22,496 nucleotides of DNA from a virus. Location of the stretch: the IMG/VR virus record IMGVR_UViG_3300009159_000347, positions 1 through 22,496 of that record. One strand, given 5' to 3'. The notes under the pieces are model-generated. The model ran no database searches. It had not been told where the DNA came from and was given only the letters and a program-made list of their open reading frames with translations. The position numbers were made by a program, and so were the translations under genes. Shown here piece after piece: positions 5,016 through 18,440 of this stretch (its first letter is position 1; each line of letters begins with the position of its first letter).

Positions 5016-6718
5016 TATTTTTCAAAACACTACGTTGGAAAAATCTACTCTCGACTGGTAATATTTTTACAGAGATAGATTTAGCTAAATCAAACAACAC
5101 ACTTATTGTCGGCGAGAATGGGGCTGGGAAGTCTACCATTCTCGACGCTTTATCGTTTGCACTGTTTGGGAAACCTTTCCGTAAGATCAACAAGCCACAG
5201 CTGCTTAACACGATCACGAAGAAAGAACTTGTTGTTGAGATTGAATTTAACATCTCCAGCAACGAGTACAAGATCGTTCGTGGAGTCAAGCCAAATATTT
5301 TTGAAGTGTATCAAAACGGTATCCTGCTTAACCAGTCTGCAGAGATAAAAGACTATCAAGAAATTCTTGAGAAGCAAATACTTAAGCTTAACATGAAGTC
5401 TTTCTGTCAGGTTGTTGTGCTTGGTTCGGCTACGTTCCAGCCGTTTATGCAGCTTCCAGGAGGACAGCGTAGAGATATTATCGAAGACCTACTTGACCTT
5501 CAAATCTTCACAACCATGAACTCGCTCCTCAAAGATAAGATGCTGGATAATAGTAGCGAATTAGATGATGTTTCAGCCGATCAAAGAGTTTTGATGGGTA
5601 GAATAGAAATAATCAAGGAACACCTGCTCGAGAAGCAAACTAACAATGAGAAGCTCGTTGCTGAGAAAATTAACGTTATTGATGACACAAATGAAAAGCT
5701 TATTGCTCTCCACGACCAATGTAAAAGTATCGAAGAGCAAATAGCTAATTTTAAAGAAAGTATTCAAGACGAACCTAAAATCAGCAAGCGTATTAATCAA
5801 CTCTCGCAGCTTAGGCATAAAATTGAAGCTAAACGTGCTCTGATTGATAAGGATGTAGCCTTTTTCGAAAGACATGAGAACTGTCCTACTTGTACTCAGA
5901 GTATTAGTAATGAGTTTCGCGAAAATACGTTGTTCACTAAGAATAATGAGATCAAAAGTATCGATACCGCCCTTGTAGATCTTGTTACACAGTACGATGA
6001 AACTAATGCTCGTTTGAATGAGATGATAGAGGTTCATGCGAATGTACAAACTTTGCAAATGCAACAAATTAAATTACGTTCTAATGGCGAATCTTTAGCT
6101 AAATATCGCGACCAGCTGATGAAAGAAATCAATCAGATAAATGTTTCACATGAGGCTGACGAAGATTCTAAAATGGCTGATCTTGAGGTAGAACTAAATT
6201 CTGTCGCCGCTCGTTATAATGATGCAATGGATCAAAAGCAGATTTATTCAGCGGCTGCTATGCTACTGAAAGACGGTGGTATTAAGGCAAGGATTATCAA
6301 GCAGTATGTTCCTGTTATTAATAAGCTCATCAATAAGTATCTTTCAGCTATGGATTTCTTTGTGCAGTTCGAGCTTGACGAGGAATTTAACGAAACAATT
6401 AAATCTCGATTCAGAGACGAATTCTCATACGCTTCTTTCTCTGAAGGTGAGAAGATGCGAATTAATCTTGCTATCTTGTTTACATGGCGTTCTGTGGCTA
6501 AGTTGCGTAATTCTATCAGCACTAACCTTCTTATTATGGACGAAGTGTTCGATAGCTCTCTAGATTCTAATGGTACAGAAGAGTTTATGAAGATACTAAA
6601 TAACCTGACATCGGATACGAATACGTTTATTATCAGCCATAAAACTGATCAGCTGTACGATAAATTTACTAATGTGATTAAATTTGAGAAGCATAAAAAC
6701 TTCAGTAAGGTTGCATGA
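5012..6718 (+). CDS. 46: gp46 recombination nuclease subunit (Rad50/SbcC-like ATPase)
   Basis: A 568-residue SMC-like ATPase, almost the same length as T4 gp46 (560). Visible parts are Walker A GENGAGKST (34-42), a Q-loop region, a long charged coiled coil with a zinc-hook CPTC (291-294) at its turn, the return coil, the ABC signature SFSEGEKMR (about 475-483) and Walker B LLIMDEVFD with D-loop SSLD (about 506-518), then the H-loop ISHKTD. The hook pairs two gp46 coils so that the gp47 nuclease heads can bridge and process DNA ends. Every key motif is intact. The stop overlaps the start of the PP-loop gene, where the T4-like core order is broken by about 8 kb of accessory genes. Confidence 0.95.
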   Translation: MIFFKTLRWKNLLSTGNIFTEIDLAKSNNTLIVGENGAGKSTILDALSFALFGKPFRKINKPQLLNTITKKELVVEIEFNISSNEYKIVRGVKPNIFEVYQNGILLNQSAEIKDYQEILEKQILKLNMKSFCQVVVLGSATFQPFMQLPGGQRRDIIEDLLDLQIFTTMNSLLKDKMLDNSSELDDVSADQRVLMGRIEIIKEHLLEKQTNNEKLVAEKINVIDDTNEKLIALHDQCKSIEEQIANFKESIQDEPKISKRINQLSQLRHKIEAKRALIDKDVAFFERHENCPTCTQSISNEFRENTLFTKNNEIKSIDTALVDLVTQYDETNARLNEMIEVHANVQTLQMQQIKLRSNGESLAKYRDQLMKEINQINVSHEADEDSKMADLEVELNSVAARYNDAMDQKQIYSAAAMLLKDGGIKARIIKQYVPVINKLINKYLSAMDFFVQFELDEEFNETIKSRFRDEFSYASFSEGEKMRINLAILFTWRSVAKLRNSISTNLLIMDEVFDSSLDSNGTEEFMKILNNLTSDTNTFIISHKTDQLYDKFTNVIKFEKHKNFSKVA

Positions 6719-7752
6719 TGGGATTACTACTTTACACAAAAATGTTCGATAACGAAAATTTAGACCTACTACCGTGGTGTCCAAAACAATATCCATACAC
6801 TCAATCTGTTAATAGAGTTATGCAGGGTATGGATCCTTTTAATGTGACGCTTGGTTGTGAAACTATTGCTGAAATTTTGCAGTTACCAACGAACAATAAA
6901 ACATATGAAGATATGGCTATTGAAAGAGCTATTCAGTTTAAGGAACTAGATGGCGATATATATATTATGTACAGCGGCGGTGTTGATAGTACTACCGCTG
7001 TAACAGCCTTCCTTGCTTCTTGGTCTACAGAAGAATTGCAACGTGTTCATATTTTAGCTTCTATCACGAGTATCGCAGAATTTCCGCAAATGTGGAATTT
7101 AATTGTGGAGAAGTTTAAGGGTAGAATTACTTCTTCATACGCTCATGTTGAGAAAGCATGCAAGAAAGGTCATGTCATCACTGGCGAGCATGGCGATCAA
7201 ATATTCGGTAGCGATGTAATTAAGAAAGTTGTCGATCATCATGGCGAAGAAGGTATACATGCTAACTGGAAAACTAAAATGCCAGTTGTGTATAATGATA
7301 TGTTTGGCAAATCAATCGCTTCAAAATTTATAGAAGTTTACGAGCGAACTACAGTAGCTTGTCCGTTTCCTATTAAGAGCTGTTTTGATTGGGTATGGTG
7401 GTTTAATTTCACCAACAAGTGGCAGCATGTTAAGTACAGATTGCTAGCATATAAAGATTGGGAAGATCCAAGAACTAATTTTTCTAAGATCCATCATTTC
7501 TTCGATACTCCTGAATGGCAGCGATGGAGTTTAGATAATCATGATCAAAAAATTGAAAACAGCTTGAGATCTTATAAAGTAGCAGGGAAAAAATTCATCA
7601 TAAAGCACACAGGCTATGATGAATATATAACTAAGGGTAAAGTAGGAAGCTTGAAAAATCTTTGGAAAAATAAAGGGTTTTATGAAGCCGTTGACGATAA
7701 TTTGAATTTTATCACAAAAGAATATGCTATGGAGTTTATCAATGGAAAATGA
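6715..7752 (+). CDS. PP-loop ATPase, asparagine-synthase-like (amidotransferase/ligase type)
   Basis: A 345-residue protein with the N-type ATP pyrophosphatase motif SGGVDS (87-92), which binds the ATP pyrophosphate, and a second motif GEHGDQIFG (157-165) resembling the GEGxDExFGG loop of asparagine synthase C-terminal domains. Such enzymes adenylate a carboxyl or carbonyl group and transfer nitrogen to it. No N-terminal glutaminase domain (Cys-2) is present, so the nitrogen source would be ammonia, another protein, or an amine substrate. The C-terminal 150 residues are rich in Trp, Lys and His with no family I recognise. ATGs at 6715 and 6718 are both possible. It overlaps gene 46 by four bases and the next gene by eleven. 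QueC-like chemistry is a less likely alternative because of the length and second motif. Confidence 0.7.
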   Translation: MMGLLLYTKMFDNENLDLLPWCPKQYPYTQSVNRVMQGMDPFNVTLGCETIAEILQLPTNNKTYEDMAIERAIQFKELDGDIYIMYSGGVDSTTAVTAFLASWSTEELQRVHILASITSIAEFPQMWNLIVEKFKGRITSSYAHVEKACKKGHVITGEHGDQIFGSDVIKKVVDHHGEEGIHANWKTKMPVVYNDMFGKSIASKFIEVYERTTVACPFPIKSCFDWVWWFNFTNKWQHVKYRLLAYKDWEDPRTNFSKIHHFFDTPEWQRWSLDNHDQKIENSLRSYKVAGKKFIIKHTGYDEYITKGKVGSLKNLWKNKGFYEAVDDNLNFITKEYAMEFINGK

Positions 7753-8365
7753 ATATATTGAAGATAATGATATTGATTATGACTACTACCTTTATGTTTA
7801 CAGAAACAGAATCGTAAAAATCGTTAAAACTCGAAAAGCGTATAATGTGGTAAAGTATAGTACTGTCATCACATACTCTAAATCTTTTATTCCTAAAGGA
7901 TTAACAATTAAAGATCTTTTGTATAACTACAACTATACTCTTACAGAGGGTTATCATAAGGTCGACGAAGAAGGCGATGAAGACAATTTAAATTCACTGA
8001 AGCGAATGACTGCTGTTCTTAGATATCTTGAAAAATTTCAATTGTTGACAAATTTCTTAAAATCTTCTATAATTTCAAGAGCGGCTGATGAAGATATCTA
8101 CAATCGTTTGTTGATGCAACAAATTCAAAATTACGAACAGAATCCTGAAGATATCGGCAGCTTACTTGAGGCTGAATTTAAATGTTCGAAATATGAAAGT
8201 TATGAAGCTCTAATCGAATCTATTAAGCTAAAATATAGCGATGCTTCAGAAGTATTTGCATATATACGATATAAGGAGTTTGAGTTTAAGAACCTCCTTC
8301 GTAGCAATAATTTCCTAGAGGTCCAAAAGATCTTAGTAGAAATGAAACAAAAACTCAAAATATGA
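7742..8365 (+). CDS. Protein of unknown function between PP-loop ATPase and cupin genes
   Basis: A 207-residue protein from the ATG at 7742, chosen because GGAG at 7731-7734 is correctly spaced; the frame is open to an earlier ATG at 7724. The first 20 residues are very acidic and tyrosine-rich (DNDIDYDYYLYVY), followed by a basic beta-rich stretch and then a mostly helical C-terminal half with charged heptad-like spacing. There is no signal peptide, membrane segment or catalytic motif I can name. The overlap with the PP-loop gene and the nine-base gap before the cupin gene make it part of a three-gene cassette, perhaps a partner subunit or substrate-binding protein of these enzymes. Confidence 0.72.
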   Translation: MENEYIEDNDIDYDYYLYVYRNRIVKIVKTRKAYNVVKYSTVITYSKSFIPKGLTIKDLLYNYNYTLTEGYHKVDEEGDEDNLNSLKRMTAVLRYLEKFQLLTNFLKSSIISRAADEDIYNRLLMQQIQNYEQNPEDIGSLLEAEFKCSKYESYEALIESIKLKYSDASEVFAYIRYKEFEFKNLLRSNNFLEVQKILVEMKQKLKI

Positions 8366-8374
8366 GAAATTGAA

Positions 8375-9055
8375 ATGATTGTTTTTCCTAACAATAAAGT
8401 TAGAGCAGACGTTATCGACAAACGTGATAGCATGTATCCAACATACGCCGTCATGACAAATACGTATCATAAAATTGATAACGACCAAATTGGCTGGGCG
8501 ACTATGTTTGGCTTCTCGCTAGGTGATTGCAAGGTTGTTGTTGGGGCTGACGTTTATCATCTAAAGCCAAACCAGTATTTTTCTATCCCTGTTAGAAATA
8601 AATGTGTTCACATAACACACGAAGATCAGCCTTCTTGTTTGTTTGCAGTATTCCGCCTTGGGTTTATTGGTCATGAACTTATTGGAAAACAAGATGTTAC
8701 ACGTACTGGTAAGTTGTCGTATATTGACGGCTGTTCTGACTCTCTGATGGTTTATCCGCCTCGCCTTGGTGATCCAACGTTGAATTATTTGTTTTTCCCA
8801 CCAAATACCAATCAGTCGTTTCACACGCATCCGAGTCTACGCATTGGTTGCGTTATTGATGGTGAAGGTATTTCGCATGCAGAATATGTCGTACCGCTTA
8901 CCCCAGGTACTTTCTTTTGTCTTGAGGAACATGAGCTTCATCGTTTTGTAACAAAAGATAAAAGTATGAAAGTAATCGCATATCACCCAGATGGCGACTG
9001 GGGTCCAACAGACGAAAACCATACTATGTTAAACAGGACTTATATAAAGAAATGA
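8375..9055 (+). CDS. Cupin-fold protein (possibly bicupin)
   Basis: A 226-residue protein whose C-terminal half carries a cupin pattern: FPPNTNQSFHTHPS (His150, His152) followed after about 33 residues by TPGTFFCLEEHELHRF (His186, His189). The two histidines of HTH plus a later histidine would bind a metal; the glutamate usual in motif 1 is not seen. The N-terminal half (GFSLGDCKVVVGADVY, PNQYFSIPV) looks like a second, degenerate cupin barrel without metal ligands. Cupins include isomerases, dioxygenases and sugar epimerases, so the reaction is open. Being placed right after the asparagine-synthase-like gene suggests small-molecule or modification chemistry. The Shine-Dalgarno is weak. Confidence 0.72.
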   Translation: MIVFPNNKVRADVIDKRDSMYPTYAVMTNTYHKIDNDQIGWATMFGFSLGDCKVVVGADVYHLKPNQYFSIPVRNKCVHITHEDQPSCLFAVFRLGFIGHELIGKQDVTRTGKLSYIDGCSDSLMVYPPRLGDPTLNYLFFPPNTNQSFHTHPSLRIGCVIDGEGISHAEYVVPLTPGTFFCLEEHELHRFVTKDKSMKVIAYHPDGDWGPTDENHTMLNRTYIKK

Positions 9056-17041: not shown

Positions 17042-17418
17042 CACCATTCGATGTTATTAACTCTATAACATACACTAAAAAACCCTTGGTCGTTGACGAA
17101 GCATCTGAAAAGATGTACAATGCGTACAACGTTAACAAGGGTCTATCATATTTCAAAGACACTATCTTTCATGCCCAAGAGATGAATATCAGTTATCATC
17201 TTGATTCCAAGCTCCAACATGATTATCTTTTCAATTCTATTAGGAAGCAAAAGAGATTCGCTAAGTGGGTTAAACCAGAAAAGGATGCTGATCTTGAAGC
17301 TGTCAAAATTTATTTCAATTATGGTTATCAAAAAGCAAAAGAAGCAATGTCAATTTTGTCGAAAGACCAATTAATTTACATTAAAGAAAAGGTTAAAGGT
17401 GGAGCATGCGAGAGATAA
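17038..17418 (+). CDS. 62: gp62 clamp loader small subunit
   Basis: A 126-residue protein that fits the short form of gp62 seen in marine T4-like phages (T4: 187). Recognisable features are the start FDVINSITYTKKPLV, the NVNKGLSYFKDTIFHAQEMN block, HDYLFNSIRKQKRFAKWVK and the closing helix SILSKDQLIYIKEKVKGG. It holds the gp44 ring to the clamp and lacks an ATP site, as expected. Compared with T4 about 60 residues are missing, mainly from the C-terminal side, which is the normal state in this branch rather than a truncation. It overlaps 44 by four bases and the oxygenase fusion by 13. Confidence 0.88.
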   Translation: MTPFDVINSITYTKKPLVVDEASEKMYNAYNVNKGLSYFKDTIFHAQEMNISYHLDSKLQHDYLFNSIRKQKRFAKWVKPEKDADLEAVKIYFNYGYQKAKEAMSILSKDQLIYIKEKVKGGACER

Positions 17419-18440
17419 AATCTATTGATAATTTTTATCCAAAAGAAATGTTCGAACAATTTTTAAAAATGTATTCGAACGTACCAATGAGGTATGGATG
17501 GAAAGGTGGTCATAGGGTAGATCCTCATGGCCATTGGAACCATTCATTTTTCACAGCTAGTTCTCAAAATTTGGCTGATTATACATTTAAATTGGACGGG
17601 TTGCTCGCTGAAATGTGCGAGTATGTTAAGAATCATGAAGCGTTGAGTGGTGAAGATCTCGCTCTGGTAAGATGCTACATCAATGGTCATACCTATGGTG
17701 TAGAAGGTTATTTCCATCAAGATAGCAGCAGAGAAGATGAGATCACAACAGTCCTTTATATGAATGATGAATGGAATCCTAATTGGGCTGGTGAAACAGT
17801 TTTCCTTGATACGAAAAGTAAAACAAGATTGCAAAGAAGCGTTCTCCCATACCCAAATAGAATGGTAATGTTTCCTTCACAAATTCCACATGCAGCTAGA
17901 GGAGTTTCTAGAAAGTGTTTGGTGCTTCGTCAAACGTTTATGTTCAAATTTAGAAAAAAGAGAACTGCAAATTTTGAAAAACTAAGTACATTCCTTGTGA
18001 AGAAGGGTACTACTAATTTTAAACACCAGAAGGGAACTTTGCACGATCATCTCGTTCGTGTCTATCAGCTTTTAGAATCGAATGGATTTTCAGAAGATAT
18101 CTGTTTTGGTGGTGGTCTTCATTCCGTATTCGGCACCAATGCTTTTACAAGAAACGTATTTACTGCCGATGACGAACAAACTCTGATTGACAATTTTGGC
18201 GCTAGAGCTACAGAACTAGCTGGCCTTTTCAGTAAAATAAACAGACCTAAATATCTCGAGAACCCAAAATCAATCAGCGATGATGGAGTTGTTGTGGTGT
18301 TAAATGATGAAAGTGAACTTACTCTCGATCGAGATACGTATTATGCACTCTGTGCTATAGAGTGTGCTAATCTTATAGATCAGGAATCTATGAAAAACAA
18401 GTCCAACCTCCAAGCATTCTGGGATCAAAATGCCAAATAA
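17406..18440 (+). CDS. 2OG-Fe(II) oxygenase fused to a DUF6817/HD-like domain
   Basis: A 344-residue two-domain protein. Residues 1-180 look like a prolyl-hydroxylase-type 2-oxoglutarate/Fe(II) oxygenase: RCYINGHTYGVEGYFHQDSS gives the HxD ligands (His104, Asp106), LYMNDEWNPNWAGETVF the Asn/Trp-rich strand, and MFPSQIPHAARGV the distal His162, with Arg175 as 2OG-binding residue. Residues about 205-300 carry GTLHDHLVRVYQLLESNG and CFGGGLHSVFGTNAF, matching the histidine-rich pattern of the DUF6817 family, which resembles an HD-type metal hydrolase. The substrate could be protein, nucleotide or DNA. It sits between 62 and regA, which are adjacent in T4. It is a different class from the TET/JBP-like gene. 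Confidence 0.8.
   Translation: MREIKSIDNFYPKEMFEQFLKMYSNVPMRYGWKGGHRVDPHGHWNHSFFTASSQNLADYTFKLDGLLAEMCEYVKNHEALSGEDLALVRCYINGHTYGVEGYFHQDSSREDEITTVLYMNDEWNPNWAGETVFLDTKSKTRLQRSVLPYPNRMVMFPSQIPHAARGVSRKCLVLRQTFMFKFRKKRTANFEKLSTFLVKKGTTNFKHQKGTLHDHLVRVYQLLESNGFSEDICFGGGLHSVFGTNAFTRNVFTADDEQTLIDNFGARATELAGLFSKINRPKYLENPKSISDDGVVVVLNDESELTLDRDTYYALCAIECANLIDQESMKNKSNLQAFWDQNAK

What the first reader, a model, noticed from the sequence alone, without database searches (positions are those of the whole stretch)
6715..9055. Three-gene cassette: asparagine-synthase-like PP-loop ATPase, unknown protein, cupin
The PP-loop protein has both SGGVDS and a GEHGDQIFG loop like asparagine synthase, yet no glutaminase domain. 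It is overlapped by an unknown 207-residue gene and closely followed by a cupin. Such ATP-dependent amide-forming enzymes paired with a cupin are not part of the T4 core and point to a specific small-molecule or nucleotide-modifying chemistry, possibly tied to the modification cluster about 2 kb downstream.
Basis: partly seen in the sequence, partly recalled or inferred. Interest (0 to 1): 0.7.

Follow-up and report, generated by a model that had tools for sequence, protein, structure and literature searches.

The report
Recurrent phage AsnB-like ligase–cupin cassette
Three neighbouring phage genes form a recurrent cassette (an ATP-using bond-forming enzyme, a small companion protein and a metal-binding cupin) that is largely missing from reference databases; what it modifies is unknown, but it is not tied to the DNA-modification genes nearby.

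Summary
In detail: a stand-alone asparagine-synthase-type PP-loop synthetase (6718-7752), an overlapping 207-residue protein (7742-8365) and a cupin (8375-9055) in a T4-like phage fragment, all under purifying selection. The PP-loop model (pLDDT 94) matches TsnB9, beta-lactam, asparagine and carbapenam synthetases best (Z 10.5-12.8), well above thiolases. Starting from the cupin alone, 29 of 36 non-redundant viral groups carry the PP-loop gene within 3 kb, 18 within 30 nt. The small protein is a fast-evolving partner, duplicated with the PP-loop gene. The same cupin subfamily sits beside asparagine-synthase proteins, apparently with a disabled glutaminase, in 31 of 62 bacterial loci. The TET/JBP link fails as a rule: 7 of 30 records. 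I read it as an ATP-dependent amide-type ligase module (ligase, dedicated partner, cupin tailoring), substrate unknown. A protein substrate, perhaps on the virion, is possible: five loci lie near glycine- or cysteine-rich tail-like proteins, four of them with a radical-SAM maturase. New variant of a known kind.

The parts
6718..7752 (+). PP-loop synthetase, asparagine-synthase/beta-lactam-synthetase type, without glutaminase domain (ORF also opens at 6715)
   Evidence: no Pfam or PHROG family at useful E-value
6973..6990 (+). SGGVDS PP-loop motif (residues 87-92)
   Evidence: G88, G89, D91 and S92 in 74 of 74 relatives; S87 in 71 of 74
7183..7209 (+). GEHGDQIFG loop (residues 157-165), counterpart of the GEGGDPxFGG loop of true asparagine synthases
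   Evidence: hhalign A4 vs A7, prob 93.6, E 2.1e-07; D161 in 70 of 74, E158 in 61 of 74
7576..7641 (+). C-terminal lysine motif K288-x3-K292 ... K307-x-K309-x-G
   Evidence: K288 in 74 of 74, K292 67, K307 68, K309 67; falls opposite the K-x3-K ... RPKSG motif of bacterial asparagine-synthase relatives in a forced full-length alignment (low per-column confidence)
7742..8365 (+). 207-aa partner protein: short N-terminal beta part, then long helices; no family matched
   Evidence: (pLDDT 90); partner families adjacent to 50 of 65 non-redundant PP genes
8375..9055 (+). cupin (degenerate N-terminal half by eye, catalytic-looking C-terminal half)
   Evidence: Pfam Cupin_2 7.6e-07
8822..8830 (+). 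cupin HTH (H150, H152): two presumed metal ligands
   Evidence: 61 of 61 phage and 49 of 49 bacterial homologues
8939..8941 (+). cupin H189: third presumed metal ligand
   Evidence: 61 of 61 phage and 49 of 49 bacterial homologues

Best explanation
The three genes are a mobile, self-contained phage enzyme module. The PP-loop protein is an AMP-forming ligase of the asparagine-synthase/beta-lactam-synthetase kind. It binds ATP with SGGxDS, activates a carboxylate as an acyl-adenylate with the help of the GExGDQ loop and the C-terminal lysines, and joins it to an amine (or a similar nucleophile) that does not come from glutamine. The small protein is its dedicated, fast-evolving partner and most likely selects or presents the substrate. 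The cupin, with three histidines for a metal, then tailors the product. Shown: the genes, their fold class, the missing glutaminase, the recurrent linkage, the co-duplication of ligase and partner, and the invariant cupin histidines. Inferred: acyl-adenylate chemistry, an amine as acceptor, the order of steps, the partner's role, and that the cupin acts on the ligase's product. Unknown: the substrate.
For: Fold: model of pLDDT 93.9; the best solved matches are all asparagine-synthase-class synthetases (TsnB9 Z 12.8, 256 aligned, 4.7 A; beta-lactam synthetase up to 12.4; asparagine synthetases 11.4-12.3; carbapenam synthetase 10.5-11.4), then GMP synthetase 9.0 and LarE 7.4. Sequence-profile link to bacterial asparagine-synthase proteins (those tested match PF00733), prob 95, E 3e-8 over the synthetase domain. 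Linkage: PP gene within 3 kb of 29 of 36 non-redundant cupin groups, 18 within 30 nt; next commonest family 11. Partner adjacent to 50 of 65 non-redundant PP genes, both partner and cupin near 45 (the partner clusters were picked from PP neighbours, so this count is descriptive). Loci with two PP genes that also carry more than one partner gene: L061, L108/L109, L111. Where the cupin lies on the other strand (e.g. L063, L064, L067, L071, L074, L100), partner and PP stay together. Independent support: the same cupin subfamily in 62 bacterial loci, 31 of them with an asparagine-synthase-type protein and 27 with a zinc-ribbon-like protein; where the start is readable these bacterial proteins lack Cys at position 2 (my reading), as expected of ligases that do not hydrolyse glutamine. 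All three genes are under purifying selection.
Against: No Pfam, PHROGs or NCBIfam family is matched by the PP protein above chance, and the profile link to asparagine synthases is confident only around the two loops. Some PP relatives have no cupin (Cygsa01 and the 167-kb record of L029; L039-L047) or no partner (15 of 65), so the trio is not obligatory. The relative L006 lacks the 207-aa gene. The cupins of 6 of 36 groups have no PP gene within 3 kb and one has only a weak PP-loop match. E158 of the loop is D, H or Q in 12 of 74 relatives. No substrate, product or assay is known.
Confidence: 0.6

Rival explanations
1. DNA or nucleotide hypermodification: the ligase and cupin add a group to a base, in series with the TET/JBP oxygenase and the glycosyltransferase-like genes 2 kb downstream.
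For: In the window's own clade the TET gene lies downstream in L003, L004, L005, L011 and L015, and two other cassette-bearing records (L076, L080) also have TET; the L006 clade carries GTP cyclohydrolase I, a PTPS (QueD-like) and a radical-SAM gene nearby, i.e. another possible base-modification route.
Against: TET in only 7 of 30 cassette-bearing records; not found in several records of 117-244 kb. The genes between cassette and TET (peptide deformylase, pyrimidine-dimer-glycosylase-like, PRA-PH/MazG-like) are ordinary. The cassette also occurs in prophages and beside capsid genes.
Confidence: 0.12
2. Ammonia-using amidotransferase: the PP protein amidates a small acid with free ammonia (as QueC or NAD synthetase do) and the cupin binds or isomerises the product.
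For: No glutaminase domain but an intact ATP site; stand-alone PP-loop enzymes that use ammonia are well known (recalled). Weak motif-level matches to QueC and NAD synthetase.
Against: Those matches cover only the PP-loop motif; NAD synthetase (Z up to 8.1) ranks well below beta-lactam/asparagine synthetases (Z 10.5-12.8). A fast-evolving protein partner is not expected for such an enzyme.
Confidence: 0.15
3. Sulfur transfer (tRNA thiolation or LarE-like).
For: Cygsa01 homologues are annotated MnmA; LarE is the top NCBIfam hit, far below cut-off.
Against: No Cys among invariant or near-invariant residues of 58 aligned relatives; LarE and NcsA reach only Z 7.2-7.4 against 10.5-12.8.
Confidence: 0.03
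4. Secondary-metabolite pathway: the module makes a small diffusible compound that alters the host or excludes rival phages, as proposed for cyanophage clusters with carbamoyltransferases, oxygenases and cupins (PMC7824862, section 22 read). This shares the ligase chemistry of the main reading and differs in the target.
For: Large loci such as L112 add TauD, fatty-acid desaturase, GNAT-like, GARS-like ATP-grasp and several PP-loop paralogues. Some bacterial cupin loci (Xenorhabdus, Chromobacterium) look biosynthetic by eye.
Against: Most loci hold only the two or three genes; a dedicated protein partner is not needed for a small-molecule ligase. Export genes were not looked for systematically.
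Confidence: 0.25

Closest known systems
Beta-lactam synthetase / carbapenam synthetase / asparagine synthetase B (PF00733 class)
   Same: PP-loop synthetase fold, SGGxDS, GExGD loop, apparently the C-terminal lysine motif; model Z 10.5-12.8
   Different: No N-terminal Ntn (glutaminase-like) domain at all, no Pfam match, family-specific WW..NF..KWQ and FF.T..FQ.W motifs, and a separate partner protein
Bacterial cupin + asparagine-synthase + zinc-ribbon clusters (Methylococcales, Planctomycetes, Competibacteraceae, Lentisphaerales)
   Same: Same cupin subfamily (H150, H152, R156, H189, H204, D206, H216 identical in 61 phage and 49 bacterial sequences) beside an asparagine-synthase-class enzyme, apparently without a working glutaminase
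   Different: Bacterial ligase is a full-length PF00733 protein; a zinc-ribbon-like protein stands where the phage has its partner protein; function unknown there too
Hydrazine synthetases (adenylating MetRS-like domain + zinc cupin) and the asparagine-synthase-like Afn14 of albofungin (PMC11705231, passages read)
   Same: ATP-dependent carboxylate activation paired with a cupin that rearranges the product
   Different: Different adenylating fold; no N-hydroxylase recognised next to the phage genes; analogy only
Lasso-peptide cyclases (asparagine-synthase-like ligase plus small recognition protein; recalled, no call)
   Same: AsnB-type ligase used without glutamine, with a dedicated small partner
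   Different: No precursor peptide or protease recognised next to the trio; partner model matches no solved recognition domain in the rows seen

Membership tests
Asparagine-synthase class of PP-loop synthetases (synthetase domain) | SGGxDS ATP-binding loop | tested here: met
   G88, G89, D91, S92 in 74 of 74 relatives
Asparagine-synthase class of PP-loop synthetases (synthetase domain) | GExGD loop at the right place | tested here: met
   hhalign prob 93.6 to asparagine-synthase proteins at this loop
Asparagine-synthase class of PP-loop synthetases (synthetase domain) | Overall fold closest to this class | tested here: met
   top 12 rows all asparagine synthetase, beta-lactam synthetase, carbapenam synthetase or TsnB9, Z 10.5-12.8; Foldseek alone is weak, best E 2e-3
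Asparagine-synthase class of PP-loop synthetases (synthetase domain) | C-terminal catalytic lysine motif | tested here: inconclusive
   invariant K288 and conserved K309 fall opposite the class motif in a forced alignment; per-column confidence low
Glutamine-hydrolysing asparagine synthetase (AsnB) | N-terminal class II glutaminase with Cys2 | tested here: not met
   no domain N-terminal of the synthetase part; gene starts at the gp46 stop
Cupin superfamily | Profile match and metal-binding histidines | tested here: met
   Cupin_2 7.6e-07, above cut-off; H150, H152, H189 in 110 of 110. The usual motif-1 Glu position (recalled) holds invariant R156
tRNA thiolation / LarE sulfur transferases | closest structural relative and a conserved Cys | tested here: not met
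   Z 7.2-7.4 against 10.5-12.8; no conserved Cys in A4
QueC (7-deazaguanine) | full-length profile match to QueC | tested here: inconclusive
   only motif-level matches; QueC is absent from the listed rows, which does not exclude it
TET/JBP-linked DNA modification pathway | regular co-occurrence with a TET/JBP gene | tested here: not met
   7 of 30 cassette-bearing records; several records may be fragments
RiPP-type protein-modifying system | recognisable substrate protein encoded next to the enzymes | tested here: inconclusive
   Cys-rich tail-like protein plus SPASM radical-SAM beside the trio in L075, L086, L096, L098; radical-SAM only in L093 and L097, which are cut off there; none seen at the window
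Known anti-phage defence proteins | PADLOC profile match | tested here: not met
   0 families for P0001-P0003

The most novel reading that the evidence does not exclude
The cassette is a virus-encoded post-translational modification machine: an AsnB-type ligase, steered by a fast-evolving adaptor protein, builds an amide or isopeptide-type bond on a phage protein (a tail fibre, tail-tip adhesin or head protein) and a cupin finishes the modification, so phages would decorate their own virions with RiPP-like chemistry.
Probability: 0.22. Interest if true: 0.85.

Novelty: new variant of a known kind. Interest (0 to 1): 0.6.

Why it matters
A recurrent two- or three-gene enzyme module that spans T4-like phages, other large phages and prophages has a ligase that Pfam, PHROGs and NCBIfam do not recognise, and it is nearly absent from cultured phages (one distant, cupin-less hit among 50,697 records). 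Conserved ligase-cupin coupling in both viruses and bacteria points to one shared reaction that I could not find described. Copies in Xanthomonas albilineans and Paraburkholderia prophages make it testable in the laboratory.

Tried and rejected
TET linkage: tested and rejected as a rule. tRNA thiolation and LarE: rejected on fold ranking and lack of a conserved Cys. Known defence proteins: no PADLOC match for P0001-P0003. Partner protein as a known family: no convincing Pfam, PHROG or PADLOC family. No solved fold stood out: Foldseek E 0.55 at best, VIA best Z 6.3 to a designed helical bundle. Viral models gave a few unnamed phage proteins (best prob 1.00, TM 0.59) and one 'tail fiber assembly' protein at prob 0.75 and TM 0.26, which I do not rely on. 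All partner clusters as one family: only partly supported. hhalign joins c20/c37/c335, c53/c58/c107/c120 and c8/c140; links between these sets are weak, and c102, c476, c627 stay unlinked. Glycine-rich tail-like protein as general substrate: seen near the PP gene in 5 loci only (4 by the motif scan plus L086, which the scan's pattern missed), so not general. Radical-SAM enzyme as part of the system: of 63 radical-SAM loci with 4 kb downstream, 8 have the cupin and 11 the PP gene, so it is a separate system that sometimes neighbours the cassette. Full-length PP family in bacterial chromosomes: apart from the two centre genomes only motif-level matches in 398 and 399 sampled genomes. QueC and RiPP recognition domains were absent from the listed structural rows, which excludes nothing. 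Literature: searches (open-access library only) showed no paper describing the phage pair; I saw the listings of all, passages of PMC11705231 and PMC7824862, and section 22 of the latter.
Full report
What is there. The window is a 22,496-base viral record, a fragment of a T4-like phage judging by gp46/gp47, UvsW, clamp-loader and other genes (gene names for the core are partly recalled). Between gp46 and a MazE-like/peptide-deformylase pair lie the three genes of the finding. The PP-loop gene opens at 6715 or 6718; close relatives start at the last base of the gp46 stop, i.e. 6718. The 207-residue gene (7742-8365) overlaps it by 11 nt and the cupin (8375-9055) follows after 9 nt. The genes are real: against L003, dN/dS is about 0.08 for the PP gene, 0.25 for the 207-aa gene and 0.10 for the cupin (ratios from the dN and dS).

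The PP-loop protein. It matches no Pfam family and only chance-level PHROGs and NCBIfam entries. Fifteen viral relatives were found with the single sequence, 38 with a profile. A 58-row alignment gave a model of mean pLDDT 93.9. Foldseek found no E below 0.001, but its top rows are carbapenam, beta-lactam and asparagine synthetases. The second aligner gives Z 12.8 (TsnB9, 256 aligned, 4.7 A) to 10.5 for twelve chains of this class, then GMP synthetase 9.0, NAD synthetase 8.1 and less, LarE 7.4, NcsA 7.2. A profile of twelve bacterial proteins (the three tested are Pfam asparagine synthases) aligns with prob 93.6 at the GEHGDQIFG loop and prob 95, E 3e-8 over the synthetase domain. Forced end to end, K288/K292 and K309 fall opposite the lysine motif of that class, with low per-column confidence. 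In the matches the aligned part mostly starts near residue 45, so no glutaminase domain exists. Among 74 non-redundant relatives G88, G89, D91, S92, W228 and K288 are invariant, D161 is D in 70 and E158 is E in 61.

The cupin. Pfam Cupin_2. H150, H152, R156, H189, H204, D206 and H216 are identical in 61 phage and 49 bacterial homologues. The bacterial loci were fetched with patterns that cover residues 116-123 and 204-211, so conservation there is biased; H150, H152, R156, H189 and H216 lie outside. Three His and no motif-1 Glu suggest a metal enzyme; the metal is not known. The best solved relative by sequence is BacB of bacilysin synthesis at E 0.004, too weak to assign a reaction.

The third protein. 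Its model (pLDDT 90) has a small N-terminal beta part and long helices; nothing solved matches well and no family was found for 32 members. It evolves faster than its neighbours: 44-54% identity to close relatives in which PP has 73-78%. Small proteins of about 200 residues occupy the place next to the PP gene in 50 of 65 non-redundant cases. I chose these clusters because they neighbour PP genes, so the count describes and does not test. Three homology sets are supported by hhalign. In L061 and L108/L109 two PP genes each have their own partner, and L111 also has two PP genes and more than one partner-type gene.

Recurrence. With the cupin profile alone, 163 viral stretches were confirmed and the best 80 kept. 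Collapsed at 90% identity and limited to cupins with 3 kb on both sides, 36 groups remain: 29 have a PP gene (90 bits or more) within 3 kb, 18 within 30 nt, 1 has only a weak PP-loop match, 6 none. The 21 groups with shorter flanks were left out of this count; 12 of them have the PP gene, 1 a weak one, 8 none. The next commonest family within 3 kb is in 11 of 36. Backbones differ: T4-like recombination genes (window), a major head protein (L065), a baseplate wedge gene in a Xanthomonas prophage (L124) and replication-type genes elsewhere. PP relatives without cupin exist: Pseudomonas phage Cygsa01 and the 167-kb record behind L029, and L039-L047. Cultured phages: only Cygsa01 among 50,697 records, 22-23% identity.

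Bacteria. The cupin profile gave 62 loci in bacterial genomes; my ORF caller found the cupin reading frame in 51 of them. 31 of 62 have an asparagine-synthase-type protein in the fetched stretch and 27 a zinc-ribbon-like protein (four and five of these loci respectively seeded the models). Where the start is readable, these ligases have S, A, D, G or P where glutaminases need Cys2 (my reading). Four of 62 have a phage-type PP gene: Paraburkholderia BCC1886, X. albilineans, Xanthomonas GPE 39 (within about 2.4 kb) and L182 (8 kb away). So the same cupin is coupled to two very different members of one ligase class, which argues that ligase and cupin act in one pathway. In the other 27 loci I recognised neither ligase type.

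Not TET. Of 30 cassette-bearing records chosen from the fetched contigs, 7 have a TET/JBP gene: five of the window's clade (L003, L004, L005, L011, L015) and two others (L076, L080). Records of 117, 167, 210, 235 and 244 kb do not. All may be incomplete.

What it does. I commit to an ATP-dependent amide-type ligase with a dedicated partner and a cupin that tailors the product (0.6). Activation plus cupin has a precedent in hydrazine synthetases, where a MetRS-like domain adenylates and a zinc cupin rearranges, and the asparagine-synthase-like Afn14 joins a hydrazine to an acid (PMC11705231, passages); this is analogy. Protein versus small molecule is open. Pointing to a protein: the dedicated fast-evolving partner; Cygsa01, where two PP genes follow a tail-fibre gene and a glycine-rich protein; the place after a baseplate gene in the Xanthomonas prophage; and the Cys-rich tail-like protein with its radical-SAM maturase next to the trio in four loci. 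Pointing to a small molecule: the large clusters of L112 and L063 with oxygenases, acyltransferase-like genes, desaturase and ATP-grasp.

Noticed in passing
L075 5913-7775, L086 5861-7741, L096 5547-8114, L098 311-2880; also 26 of the 65 radical-SAM loci that have 1.5 kb upstream: Phage contigs carry a Cys-rich protein (NCxNCD...NCNCACTYNC tail, in some behind a glycine-rich tail-like part) directly followed by a SPASM radical-SAM enzyme whose best NCBIfam match is the PapB ranthipeptide maturase (1.5e-22, far below cut-off). 180 viral stretches encode a relative of the enzyme. It looks like RiPP-type modification of a phage protein and deserves its own study.
   Followed up: partly
window 8375-9055 versus L005 3831-4511: The cupin genes are 96.9% identical in DNA and 100% in protein while neighbouring genes of the same two contigs are 57-82% identical in DNA: recent transfer of the cupin alone.
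   Followed up: partly
bacterial loci L131-L176: Bacterial cluster of cupin, zinc-ribbon-like protein and asparagine-synthase protein apparently with a disabled glutaminase, in Methylococcales, Planctomycetes, Competibacteraceae, Lentisphaerales and others; function unknown.
   Followed up: partly
L006 10404-13513: In a relative lacking the 207-aa gene, GTP cyclohydrolase I, a PTPS (QueD-like) and a radical-SAM gene follow the cassette and peptide deformylase, i.e. a possible 7-deazaguanine route; a zinc-ribbon-like 97-aa ORF lies just upstream of the PP gene.
   Followed up: no
L161, L178: In two bacterial-contig loci with phage-like genes the cupin sits beside PAPS-reductase-type PP-loop and ParB-like genes instead (PAPS_reduct 3.8e-15 in L161; the rest read by eye).
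   Followed up: no
L124 9654-11348: Between PP gene and cupin of the Xanthomonas prophage lies a 108-aa protein of a family (c48) also seen in L033, L036, L037, L066, L104; a 2OG-Fe(II) oxygenase (2e-10) follows the cupin.
   Followed up: no
L112, L105, L109, L084, L115: Several different PP-loop paralogues in one phage locus, up to four in L115; L084 and L115 also have a glyoxalase-fold protein (for L084).
   Followed up: no
window 17406-18440: 2OG-Fe(II) oxygenase fused to a DUF6817 domain (5.6e-09 and 4.9e-14), downstream of the clamp-loader genes.
   Followed up: no
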